DNA of 64,000 nt from Archilochus colubris (taxonomy: Eukaryota; Chordata; Aves; Apodiformes; Trochilidae), in NCBI GenBank assembly GCA_023079485.1, contig CM041115.1, positions 25,045,505-25,109,504 on the forward strand, in the 5' to 3' direction. The notes under the pieces are model-generated. The model did not search any database. It was not told the DNA's origin and was given only the letters and a program-made list of their open reading frames with translations. Shown here in pieces: positions 20,936-47,100 of the stretch. The position numbers and the translations under genes are program-made. Within the stretch, counting starts at the first letter, position 1. Every line of letters starts with the position of its first letter.

Positions 20936-21685
20936 ATGGGCCACCTGCTCTCGAAGGAGGCAAGCAGCCTGAGCCGCGACCGGTGCTGCCGCCGCCGGGC
21001 GAGGAAGGTGCCTCCGCGCAGCCGGAGCTGCTTCCTGCGTGGGCCTTGCATGCTCTGCTTTATCGTGCACAGCGCCAGCCCGCCCGCCCCAGAGCAGACC
21101 CTGCCCGCCGGAGACCCCTTGCTGCCACCGCCACCCTACGCGGCTCTCGCCACCGCGGAGCAGCGAGTCGCCCGCCGCCTCCTCCGCCTGCGGCCCTCCG
21201 CCTGGGAGCCGCGGGGCAGCTGCCAGCGCCTCCTCCTCTCGGGCCTGCTGCCCTCGCCGGTGCGTGGCCTCCTGGGGCCAGCCAGGCCGCCTGGCGAGGT
21301 CGCCTCCGAGATGCTGTGCAAACGCAAAGGGGCCGGCATGCCCGCCTGCCCGCCCTGCAAGCAGCCGCGATGCGCGGCCGCCGCGGAGCCCGAGGCCGTC
21401 CGCTGCCAGTGCCCGGGGGACCCGCAGCTCTGCACCCTGCCCTCCGCCGACGGCTGCGCGGCGGGCGGTGGGGGAGCCCCCGCTCGGGGCGCTGCCGGGG
21501 AGAGCGGGGGCGGGGGGCAGCCCGCCTCGCCGCAGCCTCCCGCCCTGGAGGAGAGGGAGAAAGAGGAAAGAGATGGTGAGGCTGGCTGCGAGGAGCCGCT
21601 GGAGCACCCCCGTGACTGCTGCCGAGAGCCGCTGCTGCCGGCTGCCCCGAACATAAATCAGCTGCCGTCCTCCATCCTCCTCAAG
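20936..21685 (+). CDS. FBXL17: FBXL17 coding exon 1 (residues 1-250)
   Basis: This is the first coding exon of FBXL17, the substrate-recognition subunit of an SCF (SKP1-CUL1-F-box) ubiquitin ligase known to remove aberrant BTB-domain dimers. The ATG at 20936 is chosen because it opens with MGHLLSKE, which I recognise as the start of vertebrate FBXL17. Visible parts are an Arg/Cys-rich stretch, the block SRSCFLRGPCMLCFIVHS (about residues 29-46), long Ala/Pro/Gly-rich low-complexity sequence, a Cys/Lys-rich patch CKRKGAGMPACPPCKQPRC (about 127-145), and the first part of the F-box, INQLPSSILLK (240-250). The exon ends at AAG followed by the donor gtgggt, phase 0. The N-terminal region is clearly shorter than the human one as I remember it; the difference lies in low-complexity runs. 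The GC-rich sequence leaves other frames open, but those are shadows. The start context is mediocre (T at -3, G at +4). Confidence 0.93.
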
Positions 21686-22640
21686 GTGGGTCATGGTCGG
21701 AGAACGGGCGGGTCTACCGTGATTGGGGCTGACCCCGGGGAAGCCGTGGGTGTAGAGGGGGCTGACTCCTCTTTGGGCGGGGTTTCCCATCTTCGGTCCC
21801 TACGGGGGCCGCGGCTCTCCTCCCTCACCACCCCAGAAACGGAGGGTAGGCGGGCACCGGCCCTCCCCTGGCGTTTGGGAGGTAAATAAGGTGATGGGGG
21901 TGGGGATTTTTCCCTCGTCGTTTTGGTTGTCGTTTTAAAAGGCATTTTTAGTCGTGACCGGGGCGTATAGTTAGGCAGGACTCCGGTACCTACCCCTAAA
22001 TATTTTGAGTCGCACCTGTGAAGTGAGCAATGGTCCCTTCTCAGACAGCTTCCTATTACATCACTGATGGAACACTCACTGAGGGGAACGATCACTGTAT
22101 TTAGTGCTTCTGTCGATGTCAAAACTACATAGACAAATTTTCAGTGTTGATTATAGGAAAAAAGATATGTACTACTGTGTATTTTGAGTCAGTTTTTACA
22201 TTACTGGTTCACAATCAGCCAGAGTATTTTTAGCCCAGTGGAGCTATGTACTTCCAAAGCCTTTTACTCATGCTTTCAATAACAGTCTCTCTTTCCTGCC
22301 ACCTGCTGTCTTTTGCTTCCTTTAGCGCTGTTCTCTTTTGACAACAAGTTAATTTTTAAGCTACTCTGTAGTGAGTATGCTGTCTTCAGCTAAACGTTAT
22401 CTGAAAATCAGAGTGTGGCTGAAACTGAAGCCTTTGATGTTTGCCATAGTTTGAGGACAGTGTGTCTTTAAAGTTTGGAAAGTAGTGTTCCAGTATTCAG
22501 TTTATGCCAGGATCAGGTGGTTAAACTTAAAACAAGGCATGTCAGCAGAAAAGTGTGAGACAGGTGACTTCTTGTTTCTCTGCACTGTTAGTTGTGCAAC
22601 CCCAATGTGAAAAGTACCTCCTGTATTTTGTCAAACAGTT

Positions 22641-22698
22641 AACAGCTGACTTACCTTTATGTCTTCAGTAACAGTTGACTTACCTTTGTGTCTTGCAC
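22641..22698 (+). repeat. Two-copy tandem repeat, 29-bp period
   Basis: Two imperfect copies, beginning aacagctgacttaccttta and aacagttgacttacctttg, in intron 1 about 250 bp upstream of the bornavirus-like block. Confidence 0.85.
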
Positions 22699-22950
22699 AT
22701 AAAATTAATTCTGTGGGGTTTTCAGATGGCTTGCATATTTTATTTTCTTTTTTTTAAGGTACATTTGAATGTGTTAGTAAGGGTATGTAAGCTTCATAGA
22801 TGCACTATTCAAAGAGTTCCGAAGTGCTAAAGATTGGAACAACCCAAACTCAGTTTTCCTAGTGACATACCTTTCTAATGCCCTCTCTAAGCCATTCAAC
22901 TACAAAATAATGGAAGGGGGAACTTCAGATTAATGGAGAGTTCAAAATGA

Positions 22951-23794
22951 CATGAGGAGTATATCGTATGCAACTTTGAGTTGGAGCAGTTTCATCAAGA
23001 AGAAGGACCAGGACCAGGTATTAGTTGTGAAAATGCCGTTGAAAGAAATGCCAAGGACCTTTTAGATCCATCATTTACAAGACTATTTGATGAGGTTACA
23101 CCAGGCTTGATATTTCTGTGGTTTATATTTAAAGGGTTGCACCCAGCTTTCAAAGAAGTAGGAATTGAGCAGTCTGCCATAGCACCTGCAGGTTTCACAT
23201 CAGACCAACAAGCAACTGCATCCCTGCACAAAAAAGAGCATAAAAGAGGAGATCACATTTTTAATGCACTTCAAGTTGTCTCCATAATGAAACATCATCT
23301 GGAGATCTTTCAAGGAGTTTTCTGTGGTTTGAATTAAAAAGCAGGGTCAATGCACCAAGTTACGGAAGAAGGTTCCAGGTTTTCACAGCATCATTTAACA
23401 GGCATGCAGAGGCAGACAGCACAAATATTCTTCAAGTTTACAATGCAGAACCCACGATAGATTGGATTAAATCTCAACCTTGTGTAGCCCGGTTAATTTT
23501 TCAATTAAGTATTTCAGAACTTGATTCACTTGCTAAAGAATTCATAGTGCAAATTGAAATAGTGACATGTAAGTCACAAATGTTTTACAATTTGAGTGTC
23601 TGGGGCATTGCATGGATGGGACAATTGCCTTAAGACCTGTCGTATCTGAAATACCTGCATACACAGTAGTTGAGTCTGTGAAAACTGAACTAGGCACACT
23701 ATTTGATTTTGCAGGATCAATTTGTCATGCTCGAATGTCAAAACTAAATAGAATCTTAGATGTAGTAGTATTGATTAGAAGAATGAAAGTTTAA
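22951..23794 (+). pseudogene. Endogenous bornavirus-like nucleoprotein (EBLN) pseudogene
   Basis: A DNA copy of a bornavirus-type nucleoprotein (N) gene, broken into three reading frames. N coats the genome of these negative-strand RNA viruses. Segment 1 (frame of 22951, open to 23337) contains GPGPGI, NAKDLLD, then TPGLIFLW and GLHPAF. Segment 2 (about 23322-23600, next frame) contains EPTIDWIKSQP and LAKEFIVQIEIVT. Segment 3 (about 23585-23794, third frame) contains FECLGHCMDGTI and PVVSEI. The order and spacing of these blocks match the middle of bornavirus N. At least two frameshifts break it. The extreme N-terminus and roughly the last fifth of the family length are not recognisable, so no functional protein is encoded. 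It lies in the sense orientation within FBXL17 intron 1. Identification rests on remembered family motifs, not on a search. Confidence 0.82.
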
Positions 23795-24404
23795 TTCCTG
23801 TCAGTGTCGGATAGTGATTCGGCTGGAGAGCCATCAGGGATCCTAGGAGTCAACCTCCTGTGAAAGGAAAGGATCCAGGACCAAAGGCTTGGAAATTTCT
23901 GACCACAGCATATATAAAGACTTAGTAAGTCTTTAAGAAGATATTGCAGAGCCAGAATCCACAGTACCTAGAGAAGATCGCAACATCTTGACCAACCAAA
24001 AGAGGGTTTCTGCCCTACATGAGCTAGTGAAATGCATTGCTGACTGTTAAAAAGAAGAATTATACATAGCCAGCAGAAAATTCATAGATTAATAGAAGCA
24101 AAGACTGCAGTCTGATCAAACAGGGATACTTAAGGCATTAGCACAAAAAAATACATATAACCATTTGTTAAATTCAGTAATGTGTATTATTAATGGAGTT
24201 GCCCAAGCAGAATGGGAAACTAGTAAAGATATCAAATTACTCATGGATAAGATTACTTTGACCTATGAAAATTCCTTTTTTGCAAAAACTTCAAACTTAA
24301 GAACTATCCTATTCAAATTATTCTCTTCTGTAATTCTGGAATTGAAATTTTGTATTGTAATAACTCTGAAAAATAATCCCTTTGCCGGTATTAGTGGAAG
24401 GTAA
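23795..24404 (+). pseudogene. Probable bornavirus-like phosphoprotein (P) pseudogene adjoining the EBLN
   Basis: Immediately after the N-like block lies about 600 bp, close to the usual length of a bornavirus P gene, the polymerase cofactor encoded directly after N. The first 100 bp read as Ser/Asp-rich and then Pro/Lys/Arg-rich sequence (SVSDSDSAGEPSG, and in another frame RSQPPVKGKDPGPKAW), like an acidic-then-basic P N-terminus. From 23901 one frame runs to 24404 with four in-frame stops (23934, 24048, 24090, 24093). It reads as a charged helix-forming stretch followed by an oligomerisation-like segment around KDIKLLMDKITLTYENS. Composition, length, frame pattern and position support P, but individual residue matches are weak. 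The last 79 codons before the terminal stop are uninterrupted. It could instead be unrelated spacer DNA. Confidence 0.5.
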
Positions 24405-26397
24405 CTTATTCTTTGATACTCTGTTTTAGGATTTGAAACTGGACTGACTTGTTTAGCATGATTTAAATGCTTTTTCTCATACGTGGTATCAGTACTTTTC
24501 GGTGATCACTTTAGTACTTGATTTAACTTTTTTCAAAAATACAAATCTGTAACTCTCTCATAAACCAGTTCTTTTAATAGAGAAGGTATGTTAATACCTG
24601 TCTCACCTTTGGACTAGGGTAAATATGGTGTTCTATTTTATATTGACACCATATCTAATTTGTAAAACACCAAAAACTCCCAACAGAACAATCAGAAAAC
24701 CAAGCAAACCAACAAAAAAACCTCCTTGAAAGTACAGGTACATATTCCCCACTTCCCCCAGTGAATTGGTCTCTTTAGTTCCTTAAATCCAGCTATATCA
24801 GTAGTGTTTTTGAAAAAGCCTGCCCTCAATTACATTAGGTGGTACCATCCTACTTTCCTGTTTTTTGTTTTCATCCCCCTTCCTCCCTTGCACCCTTTTC
24901 TCCTTCGCACTAATTCCCCTTTGATTTTTTGATAGATTTATGGGTTTGTTGTTTTATGGGGTTTTGGTGTTGTATTTTTTTTGTTGTTTGTTTGCTTGTT
25001 TTTTTGTTTTTGCTGCTTCCATAGAATCCTGCTCTGTTATGGGACTTCTAACTTAAGATTTCTGACCAGGCATCCTGTTAACTGAATTACACAGGTGCCT
25101 AAAAGCCTTCATGTGTTGGGTTTTGACACAGATAGAATATCCCAAATGTAATCCTGTCTCCAAATGTGCCATTTTATTGTGGGGGGTAGGAGGCCTGAAG
25201 TTTAGTAATAACTTTTCACCGTATTTAGTGGAGACGTGAACCTTAATTCATGTGCATGAGATTCAATCCTCAGAAGCCTCCAGAGCTAGACCCTGTGTTG
25301 TTTTGTGCTTCCTTCTCTTGATTCCTACCTCTGTGACCTTCTCATGGTGTGGTGCTAGTTCCAGGATGACTGCCACCAGTGTCTGTACATGGGCTGGAGA
25401 AAGGTCTGAAGGAACGTATAATAGTTGTTCAGCTATGGGCTGTACCTAGCTGCCCCAAAGTGAAGGATATGGGACTGGATGGAAGAATTTATCAGACTGA
25501 ACTTGGTCTGCAGATCCTCAAATAGGCTCCACTAATCTGGGAAGTTGATAGTGGAGTGTGTCAGGTGATGCTGTTCCCCAGGCTGGGGAAGAGGTCTCTT
25601 CATCAGTATGGAGGCATAAAAGCACTGCAGTTCCCCAGGTTAAGCAAGTGTGTAGGTTGGTTTACTTTTCGTTTAATCGCTGAAACATGTATTGGAAAAA
25701 TGTGTTACACAGCAGGCAAGATCTAATTTGTAAATTTTGTAATGATAGTTTATTACTTTTGAATAAAGGATAATTTAAATTAATTCTCTTTTAAAATCTG
25801 AGAGGAACTAAGGAATAACAGATCAGTCAACTTGACTGAAACCTAGGCAGATATGTGAATGTAAGGAAGCTCTTTATAAGCATGCAGTTTGTAAGATTAC
25901 AAAGTCCTACTCTTTGTATCACTGAGTTTTCAGATCTTTGTGCTGGGTATCACAAATCTGTGCCTTTTGCAGTTTCATGTCTGTTTGCTTTTGGAAAGCA
26001 GAAACAAATCTTTTACCTCTTCGCAGTGCTGCTGTTCAATCATAAAAGTTGAAATGGTATGAAGACTGATGGAATTTAGTAATGGTGGTTCAAACACTTC
26101 AGACTGCCCTTCGGGCTGTATGAACAGGAACTGTGCATGTAGAACGCAGAAAGGAAGTCCTACTTTTAAGCCTCTGTAAGAGTACTGCATTAGGTTGTGA
26201 GCAATGGGGCCTCCTTAAAAAAACCCACAGACAAATCAGAGAGGTATCAAAGGAGAGCTAGAGGTTGTGAAAACATGGACTGTGATGGTAGCCTGAAGAT
26301 TCAATTCAAACCAAATGACACTTCTATTCAGAAAGAAGACTGAGATGCACTCCTTTGTTAGGAGAAAATTGATAAGAAGTTCAACTGTGTTCCTGTC

Positions 26398-26542
26398 TTT
26401 CCCATAGCAGAGGTGTCAGGCATCGAGTCTTACTCTTAAACAATAATATGTTCACATGAGACAGCTGGGAAAACATCACAATAGCTCAAGCTGGTGATTG
26501 TGGAGGGGGATGCTGAACAAAGAAATGCCATGGCAATGACAT
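26398..26542 (+). repeat. Dispersed direct repeat, copy B
   Basis: This is the second copy of the 14578-14718 segment, in the same orientation, inside FBXL17 intron 1. By eye there are about six substitutions and a 4-bp length difference over roughly 145 bp. The flanks are unrelated. It may be a fragment of the LTR family next to copy A or a separate repeat. Confidence 0.9.
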
Positions 26543-29500
26543 TATGCACCTCTGTGATCTGTGCACCTGCCTGTCATGTGTTCTTCATGCATTCTTCACA
26601 CTCCCATGGTGACTGGCTGTTCTAACTTGTGTAGTTTCAGATTCTACAGAAGGTTGTAGTCTCTTTGTCTTCTCGTGTGCCCTTGTGCACTCACTTGTTG
26701 GCAGAGCATGGGAAACTAAGAAAATCAGATAAGCATTTTCTAAAAGCTAAGCCATCACTGTGTTACCAGCATTATTTTCATTATTCTCAGGTTTAGATGT
26801 GTTTTAGTGTCTCCATTTCTAAATTGTGGTGATTTGGAAGCAACACAGTGAGGACAGTTGGGTGGCTGAGAATAAAATTTTATCAGCCTCTTCAAGTAAA
26901 GATACTGTGCTTATTAGTCAGAACCTTTCTTTCCATTAGCAGGAAAGGTATCACTGTCTCCTGTCACTTTTTACAGATAAAAACTAAAAAAGTTGTGTTT
27001 CTTATTACAGCGAAGGCAATCTGTTTGCAAGTGGCTGTTAAGAGTAGTGTCTCCCTTTTGTAACCTCTGGCTGCATGTTCCTGGAGCTAGCTTTGTGCTC
27101 AGTAGACTGGTCCTGCAATTGCAGAATTGAATAATAACCCCGTCTAAGGTTGCAAAAATTTTCCTCAGGATTAGCTGTCTGAGAAGTCTTTGTCGGAGTA
27201 CAGTCACTAAATCCAGTGCAAAAATTCAGGTAGCCAGAAGCAGGGGACTAGTAAAAAGGTAAACTGTTCCTGTTGATGGCAGCTTGGTGTAGGAATCTTG
27301 TGTGTGATATGAAATGACACAACCACTTCCTGCCTGGCACATTTTTGTTAATCACAAGAGCATTTTAAACTTTATTCCCTTTATGGGTGTACTGAGGCTT
27401 CTTTAAGAGGTATGTGCCTTGAGTGCTTGTAACTTTTTCATATATTCAAGTGCTCATGAATCATTGATGTTTTCCTTATTAAGTTCACGTGCAGATAAAG
27501 CAATGAAACCTCCTAAAAATGAAGCAAATATTTCTCTGGCCTTCATCTACTGTTGAGAATTTTTTTAATTTTATGGACTAGACCAAAATAACCTTTCATA
27601 AACAATGCTGGAAGCTCTACTGTATGCCTGTAGTTAACAAACACAATGCTTTAGAGTAAAAAGTTGCATGCTCATTATGTTCTTGTATTAAATAATACTT
27701 TGGATTTATTTGCTTTTGTAATAATGGAACTTCAGTTGCTGAAAAACATTAAACAGAGCTGATGAATCAAATGAGCAGTTTTCCAAGAATGAATGTATCA
27801 GCTTCGTTAAGCACCATGAAATGTTCTTATAATGTTCTTTCTATGTAATGTTAATGCAATGTGGGGGTTTTTTTGTTGCAAAACAAATAGGGCTGATGCA
27901 GTTTCACAGATACCTATTTTTATTCGATACAAGATTTTTATTGAGAAAAGTAAGAGTCACATAAGTCTTTACTCTTCTTGTTATATTGCAAGATCTTCTG
28001 AATGAAAACTATGACAGAAATAGGGAATGTGTGGATGCACTTTTTATCATCCCCATTCTGCCCTGGGGGCTACAGTCTCTGTTGTGTTCTAATTCATAAA
28101 TCTCTAACTTGTTCTTAAAGTTAGTAGTATCTTTCAATAATGTTACTGGCAATCAAATGAATTTTCTTGCCTCTCTTCCTGAGGCAAAAGCTTAAGTGCG
28201 TGCAATCAGTCATTCTGGTTGATTGTGGTTTTTAGAAATTTTTCTTTGTCTTTTGATTGTCTTTTGATAATTTAAACAAAATTCAAGAAAAAAATTTTTT
28301 TTTTTTACTCCATACTTGTGTGGCATGTGTGATGTGAATTCTTGATTTTGGAAAAGTTGGCACTAAGTGTATTTTGTCACAAAGCATATGCACAAGTTTC
28401 TAGTGTACTTTTTGTAGTAACATTCATGATTGACTTCTTGTGATTTTCTTTGATTAGAAGTGGAGTTAGTCCTTCACTTGACTGAACTTTGAGGAACTTG
28501 CTTTAAGGTCAGATTTATCGAATATTTACAGATTAAGTTTAATACCTGGATTTACTATATTTAAATCTTGTCTTTAATCTTTTAAGAAAAGATATTCATA
28601 GGGTGTTTGGTTTTTTTGCCTTCTTTTTGTCCTTGCTGAATTGCTAACATTTACCACAAAAATTGAAAGTAGTCCTTCTTTGCCTACACTCCTGGAAATA
28701 TCTAGCATTCTCGCATACCTTTCCCAGAGTGTTACATGTGTAATGTTTGAAGCCCCATCGTATAGGTGGTAAAAGAGATAATTAAAGAACTGTTATTTCT
28801 GTCAGCTTCTGCCTTTCTTTCGATCCATGATCAAACAAAATATTTATTCCACAAAGTTGAAAAAACCCTACAACTTGATCAGGCACTGGTTTCTGTGACT
28901 GGTAAGTGTGCTGTGCAAAGGCTCAATTTGACTGGGTTAAAGTCAATTGAGCTATCACCTGGTCCAGAATAGTGAGTTGCCACAGGTGTGTGCAGACACA
29001 CTGGAAATAGTCCTGTGTTTTTGTAGTACTGTGTGCAATTAGTTGTGCTTTGTTGCTTAAAGGTAAAACAACTTCTTTGTATGGATTTTGTCCTACAAAG
29101 GATTTGTATGGTTGTGTCTTGCAAGGACATAAACTTGGACTGTTTGAAGGGTTCAGCAGGTTGGTTGTGATCTGACTGAAAGCCTGGTATATAGGGAAGT
29201 TAACTTTTGCTGTTCTGGGCATTGTGCTTTTTTTTTAATTTTTATTTTTATTTTTACTGTAGTCTTAAATGAATCACTGAATGATTGTTTCAAAGCAAGA
29301 GATTGACATACAACTGACTCTCCAGAATGTATGATAAGACCATGAATGCTGAACATTTTGGGTGTTGATCTATTTGGATCTAGTCTTGAAACCCAGGTAA
29401 TCTTTTGCATTCATTGAGGAGAAGAAAAACCCACTAATCATAATTATCACTTGAAATGGTGAAGCAGGAAGTACTGACATGTTTTAAGAATGTGAGCTGA

Positions 29501-32500
29501 AAGGGTGTAAGACTAGACAATAAAGAACATGAGTAAGGTGGTTTTTTTTGGCTTGTAGAACTCTGCTTCTTCTACCCCTCCCTCTTGTCAACAGGTGAAA
29601 AAAATGTGAAATGCATCTAGAAAATATTATCAAGCTTATTTTTTATTAGAGTGCTTGGAAAGGGGTATTACAGTATCAGACAGATTTAATTTGGGGGGGC
29701 TGGAGGGCAATGAGTGTTGGACACACAGCTATACATGCTTGAGTATACTGCTCCCTGAAATTTATCTGTCATAAGCAGGAGCTAAATGAACAAGCTTGGT
29801 GGTAGGAATATTTTTAGCTTTCTTCTGTATTTATACAGCCTTGGGAATAAGAAAACAATTTTTAATACTCAGTACAATTAAACTGCCACAGTATCAGTAT
29901 ATATCTAGAGAATTAAACCTAATTAAAAGGTGGTGAAGGCCATCAAAATTGGTTGTAGTGTTATATGTGTTAATGTAGTACTTTAACCTGCAGCTTAGAT
30001 GATCTTTCAACGTAAGGATGATGTTTCACCAAAGTGGAATATGTATAGGTGTTGCTGCTAAACCCATTTGATGCAGTTCAGTACATTATTTGATGCAGTT
30101 CAATACATGTTCTTTTAACAACTGCAAGCACTGAAGAAAAACAAAGTTTTATGTGATAAAATTCAGAATATTTTTATATTTGGAATCATGATTGCTGCAG
30201 AGCACAAAACTGGCAAGGCCTTGTCTTTGAAGTTGTACTGACTGTGTAATTTTTGTGGCTACTTCTGAAATGACTGCAATGACTGTCAACAGCAGCTTCC
30301 CAAAGAAGTGGCTGTTCCTAAAAAAGTCAGTTTGTAACACCTGTACACTCCTTACTTGTATCTACAGCTAGAGTTAAGTACAGCATGAACTAAAACATGA
30401 CCTCAAATGCTTACAGACAATTCTTCCAGAACAATATTGTCCGTGTAGAAATACTTTTTGTGTCAAGTAACTGAATTAATCTTGCTTCTCTGTTTGCTTT
30501 GGCATTGCTACTGCTCATGGAGTAGCAAAACAATAGGTCTCTTGTGATCTGTGGGGGTTTCTAGCTTTTGGTAGAATGATAGTTGGAATAAAATTTTGAA
30601 AGGGCTTTCATATTCATAATTTTTCCTGTTCTGTGTTTGCTATATTCTTGTTTCAAGAACTGCAAGCTCTTATTTCTTGTTTTTCGATGAGTAAGCTTAT
30701 TTATTTACCACAGCAGCAAAGGTTGGTTAGTATATTTTATAATTCCAACTTTGGCATCCCTTCTTACTATTACCTGGAGTCAGTCTGATATCTGCCTAAA
30801 AATAACCTGGATGATACTGCCTTATTCACTTCTGAGGCTTTTTTCGAACTGTTGGAAGGTTCAGTCTTCTGTTTCATACTGGTAGTAGGGACAAGTTTCC
30901 TGCTGCTCTAAAAAATTACAATTGCTGAGAATCATTAGACTGTCTTTTTTTTCCCTAATGCTTAAAATTACACTTTTGCAGTAGCAACGCCAGGTGCCTA
31001 ATTACTACTTAGTATTTAGTGATTTTTCTTCCTTGATTGGAGGTGTTATTTCTTTGCATGGTGGTCACAGCCACCTCCTTGCTATGTGTATAGATTCGTA
31101 AGTACAGACAGAAAACTGCAGAGAGGAAGCAGACATAGATTGTTTCATCTCTAACAAGAAACACCCGTATACTTGGGTAATGATCAAACAAAGGGCTTTC
31201 AGGAAAATGATGTCCATGCACAATTCTCCAGCACCGCAAAGAATCTTATGGAAGAGATTGAGGTTTTTGCAGCTAGAAGAAGAAACTGGAACTGATAGAT
31301 CTTCCAAGCATTTATAGAAGTCAGTGAATTTGATTTTCTTTTAGGAATAGTCAGCCAGCTCCCCTGTATGAGGATTCTTCCAGGGATATACATATTCAAA
31401 ATTCATAAGCTAAGGCATCTTCTAGAACAAGGGGGCAAAAATGGTTGTTATTGTTGTTGTCTAGTCTGTTCTAAAGACCATCAATGATGGAAATTCTGTA
31501 AGTTACCAGATATTAGATTCCAGTGCTCCATTATCCTTAGTTTTAGACTTAATTGTCCTACCCACCACAAAGATGAAAGTGTTATTCTATTTAGTTTGTT
31601 TACCTCCTTTGCCCTCTCTTTTCCTTGGTGGAACAGTCTTCCATTTTTTTCATGGTTTTCTGGATTTCAGTACTTTCCTGTTGACATTATCTAGTATGTT
31701 CAGAGTTTCTTGGCCATACTGCCTGAGATTGGCTGTAGTGCTTCTACTTAGTGTAGTTCTACTCATCAGTTGAGTGGGAGGATTTTTTCATGTTTAGCAG
31801 TCTGTATTTCTGTGTAGGTATCTTAAGGATGTGATTGCCTTTTCCATTATAGGATGATGTATGGATTACAGTTCATTTGTAGTTACAGTGAACCTTCATA
31901 TGTACCTCTTGACAGACCTTTTTATATTTACTAGTTATCGTCCTTCTGAGAAAGGATTGAATATAGTAAATGTAACAGCAGCTTGTGAGCCTGTCATAAA
32001 CTTATGGCTTATTCTTTTTTGCAGGCTGATCTAATGCTCAGTACCTTGGGGTATAAAATGCTAATTATATGCTTAGTCTCTTTGTATAACATGTTTTGCT
32101 CTGCTGATCATCTCCACCATCTTATGCCCTCTTCCCACGAGACTTTTGTTTTAGTATCTGCTTTTATGACTCCAATATCTTAACTGAATTTAAAAGCAAA
32201 GGTATTTTTATCTGAACCAGAACATGAATGAAAACTCATTTTAAATGGCTTGCAAATAACTTTGTGCTAATGCTTGTATTTGTAATTCTTTAGGTATGCC
32301 ATCACAAAAGTGCGTTTGAAATCTGGTCTAAGAAATCAGTGCTTAAGCAGGATATGTTCTCTTGCTGGTTTTGCTAATGTGAGAAAACTGTCAGCTCTTG
32401 TGTGATGCGAGGTTTTTTTGTTAATGTTTTTGACTAACCTGCAAGTTGTGGCAAGTTGTAGAGCTGTGTGTTTCAATGATACTTTTCTTTACTTCACAGG

Positions 32501-32579
32501 ACAGTTTAGTAGTAAAATATTTCTGCTTGTTAAATATGACTACCTCTTACAAATAGTATTTTTTTCATTTTCTTTTCAG

Positions 32580-32702
32580 ATACTTTCCAATTTATCCCTG
32601 AATGAGCGTTGCCTTTCAGCATCATTGGTCTGTAAATACTGGCGTGATCTCTGTTTAGATTTTCAGTTTTGGAAGCAACTGGATCTCAGTAGTCGACAAC
32701 AG
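32580..32702 (+). CDS. FBXL17: FBXL17 coding exon 2 (F-box core, residues 251-291)
   Basis: A 123-nt, 41-codon, phase 0-0 exon carrying most of the F-box, the helical motif that binds SKP1. It reads from ILSNLSLNERCLSASLVCKY through the WRDLCLDF and WKQLDLSS blocks to RQQ. This is nearly identical to the human FBXL17 F-box as I know it; the second residue of the exon is Leu where the human protein has Phe. The acceptor follows a pyrimidine-rich tract (tcttttcag) and the donor is cag/gtatga. Joined to exon 1 it restores a continuous F-box (about residues 240-285). The reading frame is also open upstream of the acceptor, but that sequence is intronic. Exon 1 is 10.9 kb upstream and exon 3 is 1.1 kb downstream. 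Confidence 0.96.
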
Positions 32703-33820: not shown

Positions 33821-34078
33821 GTCACTGATGAGCTGTTGGAAAAGTTAGCATCAAGAAGCCAGAATATTACAGAAATCAATATTTCTGATTGTCGCAATGT
33901 ATCTGATACAGGAGTATGCATATTAGCCATTAAATGCCCTGGACTCCTAAGATATACTGCCTACAGATGTAAACAGCTTTCTGACACCTCTATTATTGCA
34001 GTTGCCTCTCAGTGTCCTCTTCTTCAGAAAGTGCATGTGGGCAATCAGGACAGACTCACTGATGAAAGTCTCAAGCAG
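33821..34078 (+). CDS. FBXL17: FBXL17 coding exon 3 (first leucine-rich repeats, residues 292-377)
   Basis: A 258-nt, 86-codon, phase 0-0 exon that begins VTDELLEKLASRSQNITEIN and continues with leucine-rich repeats of the Cys-containing FBXL type. Repeat signatures visible in order are INISDC, CPGLLRYTAYRC, LSDTSIIAVASQCPLL, VHVGNQDRLTDES. In FBXL17 these repeats form the solenoid that wraps the BTB substrate. The acceptor is ttctttgcag and the donor is aagcag/gtaacc. The frame runs on into intron 3 to a stop near 34174; a transcript retaining that intron would add 32 unrelated residues, but nothing suggests that it is used. Substitutions relative to the remembered human sequence are conservative (for example Lys to Arg before LTDE). 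Confidence 0.96.
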
Positions 34079-43848: not shown

Positions 43849-44128
43849 TTTTGTTTTGTGTTTGGTTTTGGGTTTGGTTTTGGGTTTGGTTTTGGGTTTG
43901 GTTTTGGTTTGGTTTTGGTGTTTTTGGTTTTGTGGTTTTTTGGTTTTGTGTTTTTTGGTTTTGTGTTTTTTGGTTTTGTGTTTTTTGGTTTTGTGTTTTT
44001 TGGTTTTGTGTTTTTTGGTTTTGTGTTTTTTGGTTTTTTTGTTTGTTTTGGTTTTGTGTTTTTTGGTTTTTTTGTTTGTTTTGGTTTTGTGTTTTTTGGT
44101 TTTTTTGTTTGTTTTGGTTTGGTTTTTG
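43849..44128 (+). repeat. 280-nt G/T-only minisatellite with nested periods
   Basis: From 43849 to 44128 the + strand contains only G and T. It starts with four units of GGGTTTGGTTTT (12 bp), passes into about seven units of GGTTTTGTGTTTTTT (15 bp) from about 43920, and ends with about three copies of a 33-bp compound unit. All periods are multiples of three, so all three + frames stay open for 95-119 codons. These Trp/Phe/Val/Leu repeat frames are artefacts. The 12-bp part carries clustered GG/GGG tracts able to form two-tier G-quadruplexes. Confidence 0.95.
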
Positions 44129-47100
44129 CTTTGTTTTGTTTGAGGGGTGGGTAGTTTCTGTTTAATCTAGTAATATCTTATGGTAAAGAGACCACTGGCA
44201 AACTCTAGATGAATCATTGTAGCTCCTAATATTTTAAGTCAGCATCTTGATCTGTGTTGTATTTGGTAAAAATCTTAAGCTGTTTACTTAACCATAACAG
44301 TAAAACAAAATTGATAATACTGCTCCCAGTGAGCTGTGTTGTGTTTTACTGTAGGAGATCACAAGTATGATACTGTAAAGGATATCCTTGAAACTGTTAG
44401 TTTCATTATTTTAAAATGGTGCTAATTCTTGTCCATCAAAGATAATGCAAATATGCTTTTATTTGTATAGGGCAACAGCAAGATTATGTAAAAATCATGA
44501 CCATCTTTGTTTTTTTTTTCATCTATTCCACCAAATTCCAGTTGAATTTTTATCTTTAAGAAGCTAAAAAAGTGAACTTGTCAAATTTCTGAAGGTGGAT
44601 GAAAACACAGTTTCCCAAATAACTGGACTCTTTACGTCGCATGATGCTTGAACTTTACACAGGATGACATTTTAAGGATTAGAGATCGATTGGACCTTGC
44701 ATGCAGTTAGGTGTCATGGAAGTTCTAGAAATGTCTACATTATCTCCCCTTATGCTGCTAAAGAGACTTGGGAACAAATATATTCATGTTCACTCCTAAA
44801 TACCTTAACATGCTCTTTTGCATTGTTGTGTTCACCAAAATACTAGGTTGTTGACTCATTTATTACAAATTTAGTGGGCATAGAGGATGAACTGCTCAGA
44901 CTATCCTAAATACTATCCTAAATACATTCTTTTGAGGTTAAATTGTTTAACTTTTGGACTGCAATATTAGTTACACAGGTGCATGAAGTTTTGGTTTCAT
45001 ACTTAGCCTGAAGGCTTGTCACTGCAAACTTATTATCCGTATCTAAACCTGTCCTTGGTGTTCCATGTTTTATGTGCTTTCATAATCCCAGAAATTCCAG
45101 CCTTATTTACTGTAGAATTTGCTGTGGTCTATCAACTGTCATTGTTCTTTTTATCCAGAATGCTAATGCTTAAACTCTTATTTATCTGGGCTTTAGACAA
45201 AGGCACCATTGTACTTACAGTGTCTACCCGTGAACATCCTGTTCTGCTCTTCAGAGCTATGTACAGCTTTGCCACAGTATTTTTTCTCAGAGTCCTTAGC
45301 TTAGTGTTCCTTGTTTCTTCTATTTTGCACCTAAACATTTATTTTTTAATTTTCCGTGTGTTAACCATTTGAAAGTTCTGTTGTGTATGAAACTTTCCTA
45401 AAGATTGTCTTGATGGTGTGGTCTTCAGACACCAACTTGTGATTATTTTCTGGTTTTCTTGGTGCATTGCACCCAAATGTTTGGTGGATGTTTGTTTGTT
45501 TGACTTTTTGTTTGGTTGTTTGTTTTGTCTGTGGGGTTTGTACCTCCTGATGTTATGCAGAAATTACTGTTTTCTAAAAATGCAAAATTATTTTTAGAGC
45601 TCAAATTTTTCAGGGGTTGAGAGCTATAGAAACTTGTATGTCTGGTGGACAATCTAAAGTGACCATAGGGGTGATTTTACAGGATTAGTGGTTTTTAAAT
45701 GGGATGGAGTTAAATTGCTTCATAGTAGCTCATGTAGTGTTAGTTTTTGGATTTGTGACCAGAACAGTGTCTAGATATCTAACAGTGCTTACGCAGAGTC
45801 AAGGCCCTCTCTGCTTTTCACGCTGACATTTGGGTGAGCAGACTGATTTCACAAGAAGTTGGGAGCTGATCCCAGTTAACCAAAGGGATATCCCATATCT
45901 TATAAGGTCATGCTAAGGAATAAAACAGAGGGAAGGAGGAAAGGAGTTGCAGTTTCTCTTCCAAAGCAGATGTTAGTGTGATGAAGGCCTACTTTCCAGG
46001 AAGTGGCTGAATACCTACATGATTGAGGACAAGCAGGAGAAGAATACTGTGAACTTTTAAGATAAACTTACTGCTTCATTAAACAGTATTATGAATTCTG
46101 AGGATTTCCCCATACTAAAAAATCACAAAGATATATTTTTTTAAAAAAAGTATAAAAATAATACCAAGGTTGGCCTGACATAATAATTACAAAAATGAGT
46201 AATACTGAAGTATTTTTTTCCCTCTCCAAAGAGCAAATTATGGTTTCTGTTGAATGTAAACCAATGGGTCTGCTTTGAGGTGAGGGAGGGTGCAGTGGCA
46301 AGTGCAGTTTTCCAGAAGAGTTCTTCTGACTGCTTACAGGGATTGCATTTCTACAGCAATGATTGTGCAATTAATCAGTGTTGCTGTTAAAGATTTAGCT
46401 TTGGAATGTAGTTGTTACAAAAGAGGTGTTTACTTTGCAGAGACTGTCAACTTGGCTGTGACTGCTGGCATCGGTATGGTTCTGCTTTGTTGTATTTATA
46501 AATCTGTGTTTGGGGGCATTTTATACCTATGAAAAGGGACTATTATAAAATCAGTTTTATAGTTTTGTTAAAATTATTATAATATTAAATACTGTGATTA
46601 ACTAAAATGTGTGAAAATTGAAGTTATGGGTTGCAGTGAAGTTTCCTGGTTTTGGTTTGAGGTTTTTTTTGGGCGTGGTGGTGGGAATGAATTAGAGATG
46701 TTAATCTTGTGCAGCCTCTTGGAAACACTAAGGACTACTTAAATATAGAGAGTATATATATGCTGTCTAACATTATTAAATTCATTGCTGTAGTCTCAAA
46801 ATTCCCTGATTTCAACACATACTGCATCAATCTGTTCAAGTAGAGGATTGAAACAATTACTTCAAAATCCTTTTATACTGCAGTTATTGTTAAGGAAAAT
46901 TCCAACTACATTTTAAGTATGTCATAACAAGAAATAACTAAAACTGGGTACTTATTTTGACTTTTTTTTGTCATTTTAAAGCTAATGCATTTCAGCCAAA
47001 TGCACTGGTTCCTAATGCATAAAAATGTGGTATCATGTGAGACTCCATATATTTGTGTCTGCAGAACAATTTCTTCTTGTCACTTAGTAGTGGCTTTTAA

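What the first reader, a model, noticed from the sequence alone, without database searches (positions are those of the whole stretch)
22951..23794. Endogenous bornavirus-like nucleoprotein fossil inside FBXL17 intron 1
Three consecutive frames contain, in order, the conserved blocks expected of a bornavirus nucleoprotein (GPGPGI, NAKDLLD, TPGLIFLW-GLHPAF, IDWIKSQP, LAKEFIVQIEIVT, CMDGTI-PVVSEI). Germline copies of non-retroviral RNA viruses are rare, and each is a dated record of ancient infection. The two frameshifts and the lost ends show that it is old and not protein-coding. Its sense orientation means it is transcribed within the FBXL17 pre-mRNA and could yield small or chimeric RNAs.
Basis: partly seen in the sequence, partly recalled or inferred. 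Interest (0 to 1): 0.9.

Follow-up and report, generated by a model that had tools for sequence, protein, structure and literature searches.

The report
Bornavirus nucleoprotein fossil in bird intron
A broken, non-coding copy of an ancient bornavirus nucleoprotein gene lies in the first intron of a bird's FBXL17 gene and is shared with a hummingbird; it is a genuine viral fossil, but of a kind already known.

Summary
Three consecutive frames (22951-23334, 23265-23630, 23573-23791) match, in order, Pfam BDV_P40 positions 26-127, 139-216 and 224-275 (E 2e-13, 7e-18, 2e-5; the third just below Pfam's cut-off) and solved bornavirus N (piece 3 weakly), 82 of 244 columns identical. FBXL17 exons 1-3 lie on the same strand; the element is in intron 1. 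Its one relative found is a hummingbird gene model, Heliangelus exortis. That model's first coding piece maps 1.2 kb upstream in the window and its off-frame C-terminus is the same, so locus and second frameshift are shared. It is a decayed endogenous bornavirus-like nucleoprotein (EBLN). EBLNs in Anna's hummingbird were reported in 2014 (PMC4272516); whether this locus was among them is unknown. Open point: 23795-24404 has a stop-poor frame, weak in-order resemblance to bornavirus P peptides, and an A-rich tract downstream near where a 1.9-kb N/X/P transcript would end. Profile, structure and fold searches found nothing and the statistics are marginal. If it is P, this is an avian N/X/P read-through fossil, a kind that a 2023 survey's text lists for other vertebrate classes but not for birds.

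The parts
22951..23334 (+). N fossil, piece 1 (profile-matched 23005-23319)
   Evidence: Pfam PF06407 positions 26-127, E 2e-13; PDB 1n93 E 7e-10
23265..23630 (+). N fossil, piece 2 (profile-matched 23352-23585); its last 14 codons and stop are off-frame after the second frameshift
   Evidence: PF06407 positions 139-216, E 7e-18; PDB 1n93 E 1.2e-10; 86% identical Heliangelus model
23573..23791 (+). N fossil, piece 3 (profile-matched 23597-23749)
   Evidence: PF06407 positions 224-275, E 2e-5, 24.1 bits against a cut-off of 26.3; PDB E 0.08-0.19
21686..32579 (+). FBXL17 intron 1, which holds the element
   Evidence: F-box peptides and splice sites; exon 2 F-box; exon 3 FBXL17
21693..21749 (+). 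Counterpart of the first coding piece of the Heliangelus gene model; here with a stop at 21720; followed by a GT donor
   Evidence: tblastn 18 of 19 residues; stop and donor
23192..23304 (+). Possible small intron inside the element, implied by the Heliangelus model; GT...AG kept in the window
   Evidence: junctions inferred from the protein, Heliangelus DNA not seen
23795..24404 (+). Candidate decayed P (X/P) region, unproven; the stop-poor frame is 23847-24401
   Evidence: 4 stops in 185 codons; in-order P peptide matches; searches of pieces negative
24661..24723 (+). A-rich tract, possible poly(A) remnant or simple sequence
   Evidence: one of 3 tracts of at least 60% A in the window, one of 14 at 55%

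Best explanation
An endogenous bornavirus-like nucleoprotein element (EBLN): a DNA copy of an ancient bornavirus N transcript that entered the germline of an ancestor of hummingbirds, landed in sense orientation in FBXL17 intron 1, and has decayed as a non-coding passenger through frameshifts and loss of recognisable ends. Shown here: N homology, locus, orientation, frameshifts, and that a hummingbird gene model sits at the same place with the second frameshift already present. Inferred: copying of viral mRNA by a host retroelement, transcription inside FBXL17 pre-mRNA and removal by splicing, and absence of a present function.
For: Colinear Pfam hits and PDB hits; 82 of 244 columns identical to bornavirus N chains; FBXL17 exons on both sides in the same orientation; Heliangelus model at the same locus with the same off-frame end; two frame changes.
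Against: Piece 3 is below Pfam's cut-off by itself. There are no stops in 234 matched codons, so weak past constraint cannot be ruled out from one genome. No empty site, target-site duplication or clear poly(A) tail was shown, so the integration mechanism is inferred.
Confidence: 0.93

Rival explanations
1. The insertion is longer than N: a copy of the N/X/P read-through mRNA, with a decayed P gene at 23795-24404 and possibly a poly(A) remnant at 24661-24723. This extends rather than contradicts the best explanation.
For: Frame 0 of 23847-24401 has 4 stops in 185 codons (19 of 2000 Markov simulations reach this; 7.9% of 1528 real intron windows do). Three-base periodicity is reached by 2.9% of 1033 intron windows (some null windows gave undefined values, so the true share may be slightly higher). 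BoDV-1 P peptides match in the same frame and in order at 23952-23993 and 24231-24254; the summed score is reached at 12 of 640 loci, this one included. An A-rich tract lies near the expected end of a 1.9-kb transcript (length from PMC10288550). Read-through EBLN/X/P elements are known in bats.
Against: No hit in Pfam, PDB or the protein database for the pieces tried; low-confidence fold, no meaningful BFVD match. No T1/S2 motif within 3 mismatches near the element (best 13 of 18). No direct repeat above chance. Non-A letters of the tract are mostly C. Spacing of the P matches is shorter than in BoDV-1. X5-23, X61-79 and P181-195 give nothing. N5-27 scores higher (29) on part of the same stretch than P21-43 does (25), and one of two N positive controls missed its place. 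Periodicity of the two overlapping half-blocks is not significant (0.19 each).
Confidence: 0.42
2. The element has been co-opted: it is spliced onto FBXL17 exon 1 or an extension of it and gives a chimeric RNA or a short protein in hummingbirds.
For: The Heliangelus gene model joins a piece just inside intron 1 to the element. All four splice dinucleotides implied are present in the window. A bat EBLP is spliced to ZNF451 (PMC10288550).
Against: The protein model ends off-frame, skips part of N as a 113-base intron, and has a stop in its first piece in the window, which is what automatic models do to bridge frameshifts. No RNA data were available.
Confidence: 0.1
3. A chance resemblance or a cellular gene fragment.
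For: None found.
Against: E-values of 2e-13 and 7e-18 with profile colinearity; no cellular family matched any of the three pieces in Pfam.
Confidence: 0.005

Closest known systems
Heliangelus exortis 'endogenous Bornavirus-like nucleoprotein 1' gene model (P0001)
   Same: Same locus (first coding piece maps to 21693-21749), 86% identity over piece 2, same off-frame C-terminus and stop
   Different: Annotated as a 195-residue protein; in the window the first piece has a stop. At least 16 base changes over 175 codons compared
EBLNs of Anna's hummingbird, chimney swift and downy woodpecker (Cui et al. 2014, PMC4272516; passages and section 8 seen)
   Same: Avian EBLNs; their N alignment used residues 43-224, close to the part kept here
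   Different: The paper reports the swift and hummingbird copies at different sites; whether its hummingbird copy is this locus could not be checked
Bat EBLN/X/P elements (Garcia et al. 2023, PMC10288550; parts 1-3 of 6 and passages seen)
   Same: N fossil, with a possible X/P remnant downstream, in an intronic setting for one of them
   Different: Those have transcription signals, poly(A) and target-site duplications; here none was shown
Exogenous bornavirus nucleoprotein (PDB 1n93)
   Same: 82 of 244 aligned columns identical to it or a near-identical chain
   Different: An intact viral protein; here broken and non-coding

Membership tests
EBLN (endogenous bornavirus-like N element) | Significant homology to bornavirus N | tested here: met
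EBLN (endogenous bornavirus-like N element) | Integrated in host chromosomal DNA | tested here: met
   Lies between FBXL17 exons 1 and 2 in the window; the Heliangelus counterpart is on a 73.9-Mb contig
EBLN (endogenous bornavirus-like N element) | Shared by descent at one site in related hosts | tested here: met
   Same neighbouring sequence and second frameshift in Heliangelus; known from its protein model only
EBLN (endogenous bornavirus-like N element) | Empty site in outgroups | not testable with these tools
   No bird genomes could be searched; the own-assembly search was busy in 11 tries
EBLN/X/P (read-through transcript insertion) | X/P sequence downstream of N | tested here: inconclusive
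   weakly for; negative
EBLN/X/P (read-through transcript insertion) | T1/S2 signal-like sequence at the N-P junction | tested here: not met
   No match within 3 mismatches near the element
LINE-type retrocopy of viral mRNA | Poly(A) tail and target-site duplication | tested here: inconclusive
   A-rich tract at 24661-24723 but C-rich otherwise; 2 shared 8-mers against a chance mean of 5.7
Domesticated (protein-coding) EBLN | Intact open reading frame | tested here: not met
   Two frame changes between pieces; stop in the first piece of the Heliangelus-type model

The most novel reading that the evidence does not exclude
A bird carries a fossil of a bornavirus N/X/P read-through transcript, with a P remnant at 23795-24404, in sense in FBXL17 intron 1, and in at least one hummingbird it is spliced into a chimeric FBXL17-EBL transcript. 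It would be an avian member of a class that the 2023 survey's text lists in mammals, reptiles, amphibians and fish, but not in birds.
Probability: 0.12. Interest if true: 0.6.

Novelty: new member of a known kind. Interest (0 to 1): 0.35.

Why it matters
Bird EBLs are few: one 2024 catalogue gives 30 Bornaviridae elements from an estimated 11 germline events in Aves (PMC11089739, passages). A locus shared with Heliangelus, with a common frameshift, gives a minimum age for bornavirus infection in that lineage, whereas the 2014 survey judged the swift and hummingbird copies to be independent insertions. If the downstream stretch is P, it would point to N/X/P read-through transcription by an ancient bird bornavirus and suggest that X/P fossils in birds have been overlooked.

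Tried and rejected
Considered and rejected: chance or a cellular gene; a coding gene (frame changes; stop at 21720).

Tried without result: the region in phage records; N in viral contigs; candidate P pieces in Pfam, the PDB and the protein database; structure of 24096-24401 (mean pLDDT 52) and a BFVD search (8 matches at E 1.6-9.4); T1/S2 motif; Pfam on 10 further flanking frames; Rfam on the window. P0001 against the protein database found only itself at E up to 0.1, of 134 candidates, so no tree was made and the bornavirus genus is unknown. A no-indel layout, using BoDV-1 gene positions recalled from memory (N ending near 23978, P near 24089-24695), and the candidate P layout from the peptide matches do not agree; neither was confirmed. 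The 2021 PNAS EBL catalogue is not held, and supplements could not be read.

Full report
What is there. Scanned as separate pieces, 3 of the 8 pieces hit Pfam PF06407 (BDV_P40): 22951-23334 at profile 26-127 (E 2e-13, 50.5 bits), 23265-23630 at 139-216 (E 7e-18, 65.1 bits) and 23573-23791 at 224-275 (E 2e-5, 24.1 bits; cut-off 26.3). The order on the DNA is the order on the profile. Against solved structures, piece 1 matched 4 sequences, all named nucleoprotein and led by 1n93 (E about 1e-9). Piece 2 matched 5: the same four (E about 1e-10) and a G protein alpha subunit at E 1.2. Piece 3 matched the same four at E 0.08-0.19. Over the printed alignments 82 of 244 columns are identical. There are no stops in the 234 profile-matched codons, but two frame changes. 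By the residue numbers, N residues about 42-294 are recognised.

Where it is. The F-box start peptide lies at 21653 and its continuation at 32592. Splice sites read put exon 1's end at 21685, exon 2 at 32580-32702 and the start of exon 3 at 33821. Exon 3 matches FBXL17 (8uah, E 3e-57) and exon 2 an F-box (E 6e-9). So the element lies in FBXL17 intron 1, in sense orientation, about 1.3 kb after exon 1.

Relatives and age. [quoted passage not shown] Heliangelus is a hummingbird (Trochilidae). P0001's first 19 residues lie at window 21693-21749 (18 of 19), so the Heliangelus copy is at the same place. Its last residues are the same off-frame reading and stop that the window has after the second frameshift, so that frameshift is older than the split. 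The model changes from frame 1 to frame 0 across a small intron where the window has the first frameshift; this fits a shared first frameshift but does not prove it. Over 175 codons compared (the stretch skipped by the model is left out) there are 15 amino-acid differences, at least 16 base changes, or about 4.3% divergence if neutral. That suggests, but does not prove, that the window is also a hummingbird. Passages of PMC4460853 quote 22.4 (20.3-24.7) million years, which I read as the hummingbird crown age, and a fossil minimum of 47.5 million years for the swift/hummingbird split. PMC4272516 (section 8) reports that the swift and Anna's hummingbird copies lie at different sites; I could not confirm that its hummingbird copy is this one.

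Possible transcript. Laying P0001 on the window implies junctions 21749/22990 and 23191/23305; the Heliangelus DNA itself was not seen. All four splice dinucleotides are present in the window. The first coding piece begins 8 bases inside intron 1, so the underlying exon could be an extended FBXL17 exon 1 (inference). In the window this piece has a stop at 21720. A bat EBLP forms a chimera with ZNF451 (PMC10288550). Without RNA reads, a gene-model artefact is the simpler view.

Is there more than N? In orthobornaviruses X/P follows N (PMC8491894, whole text), and read-through gives a 1.9-kb N/X/P mRNA (PMC10288550). [quoted passage not shown] 'avian', 'bird' and 'aves' occur 0 times in its main text; its supplements were not seen. 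After the N hit, frame 0 from 23847 to 24401 has 4 stops in 185 codons. This is reached by 19 of 2000 Markov simulations but by 7.9% of 1528 real intron windows. Three-base periodicity is reached by 2.9% of 1033 windows for the whole stretch, but by 19% for each of two overlapping half-blocks; of the three N pieces, two pass 5% in the same test and one does not (0.9%, 24%, 3.4%, in which some null windows gave undefined values). BoDV-1 P peptides printed in PMC9867173 (passages) match in this frame and in order at 23952-23993 and 24231-24254. The summed score is reached at 12 of 640 loci, this one included. Power and specificity are low: one N positive control ranked first at the right place and the other missed it, N318-348 ranked first at a wrong place, and N5-27 scored higher on part of the P-like stretch than P21-43 did. 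X5-23, X61-79 and P181-195 gave nothing (best region ranks 96, 180, 131). No T1/S2 motif was found near the element and no flanking direct repeat above chance. An A-rich tract at 24661-24723 is one of three with at least 60% A in the window (14 at 55%). It lies about where a 1.9-kb transcript starting at N would end, but its other letters are mostly C. Profile, structure and fold searches of the pieces are negative. The C-terminal helix of P is its better conserved half (PMC9692295, passages), so a clear P might have been expected to show. These marginal signals were picked after looking; I put the P reading a little under one half.

Literature on novelty. The 2014 survey calls its avian EBLs the first (PMC4272516). 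A 2024 catalogue counts 30 Bornaviridae elements from an estimated 11 events in Aves (PMC11089739, passages), and another reports bornavirus orthogroups in birds and mammals (PMC11521997, passages). In the held library, 'endogenous bornavirus-like' with 'hummingbird' found 1 paper, the 2014 one; of 15 listed from 33, only that paper holds 'bornavirus'. 'EBLP' with 'EBLN' found 2 papers, both with bat results in their abstracts or titles. A last search (15 of 211 listed) showed no further avian EBL paper. The 2021 catalogue is not held. The finding is therefore real and correctly named, and a new or re-found member of a known kind; its open value lies in the possible P remnant and in the shared, datable locus.

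Noticed in passing
462-2999: Non-LTR retrotransposon remains: an endonuclease piece on the - strand (462-821) and a reverse-transcriptase piece on the + strand (2428-2778), both just below Pfam cut-offs; CR1-like by recall.
   Followed up: partly
43849-44142: A roughly 290-base array of GGTTTT-type tandem repeats that opens long frames on both strands.
   Followed up: no
22640-22694: Two 26-base near-identical direct copies, 29 bases apart, shortly before the element.
   Followed up: no
24684-25015: The A-rich tract and a T-rich tract form a 37-base inverted pair (81% complementary, 258 bases apart); a caution against reading the A-rich part as a poly(A) tail.
   Followed up: partly
21693-21749: The first coding piece of the Heliangelus model starts 8 bases after the FBXL17 exon 1 donor, as if exon 1 could be extended to a second donor at 21750.
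   Followed up: partly
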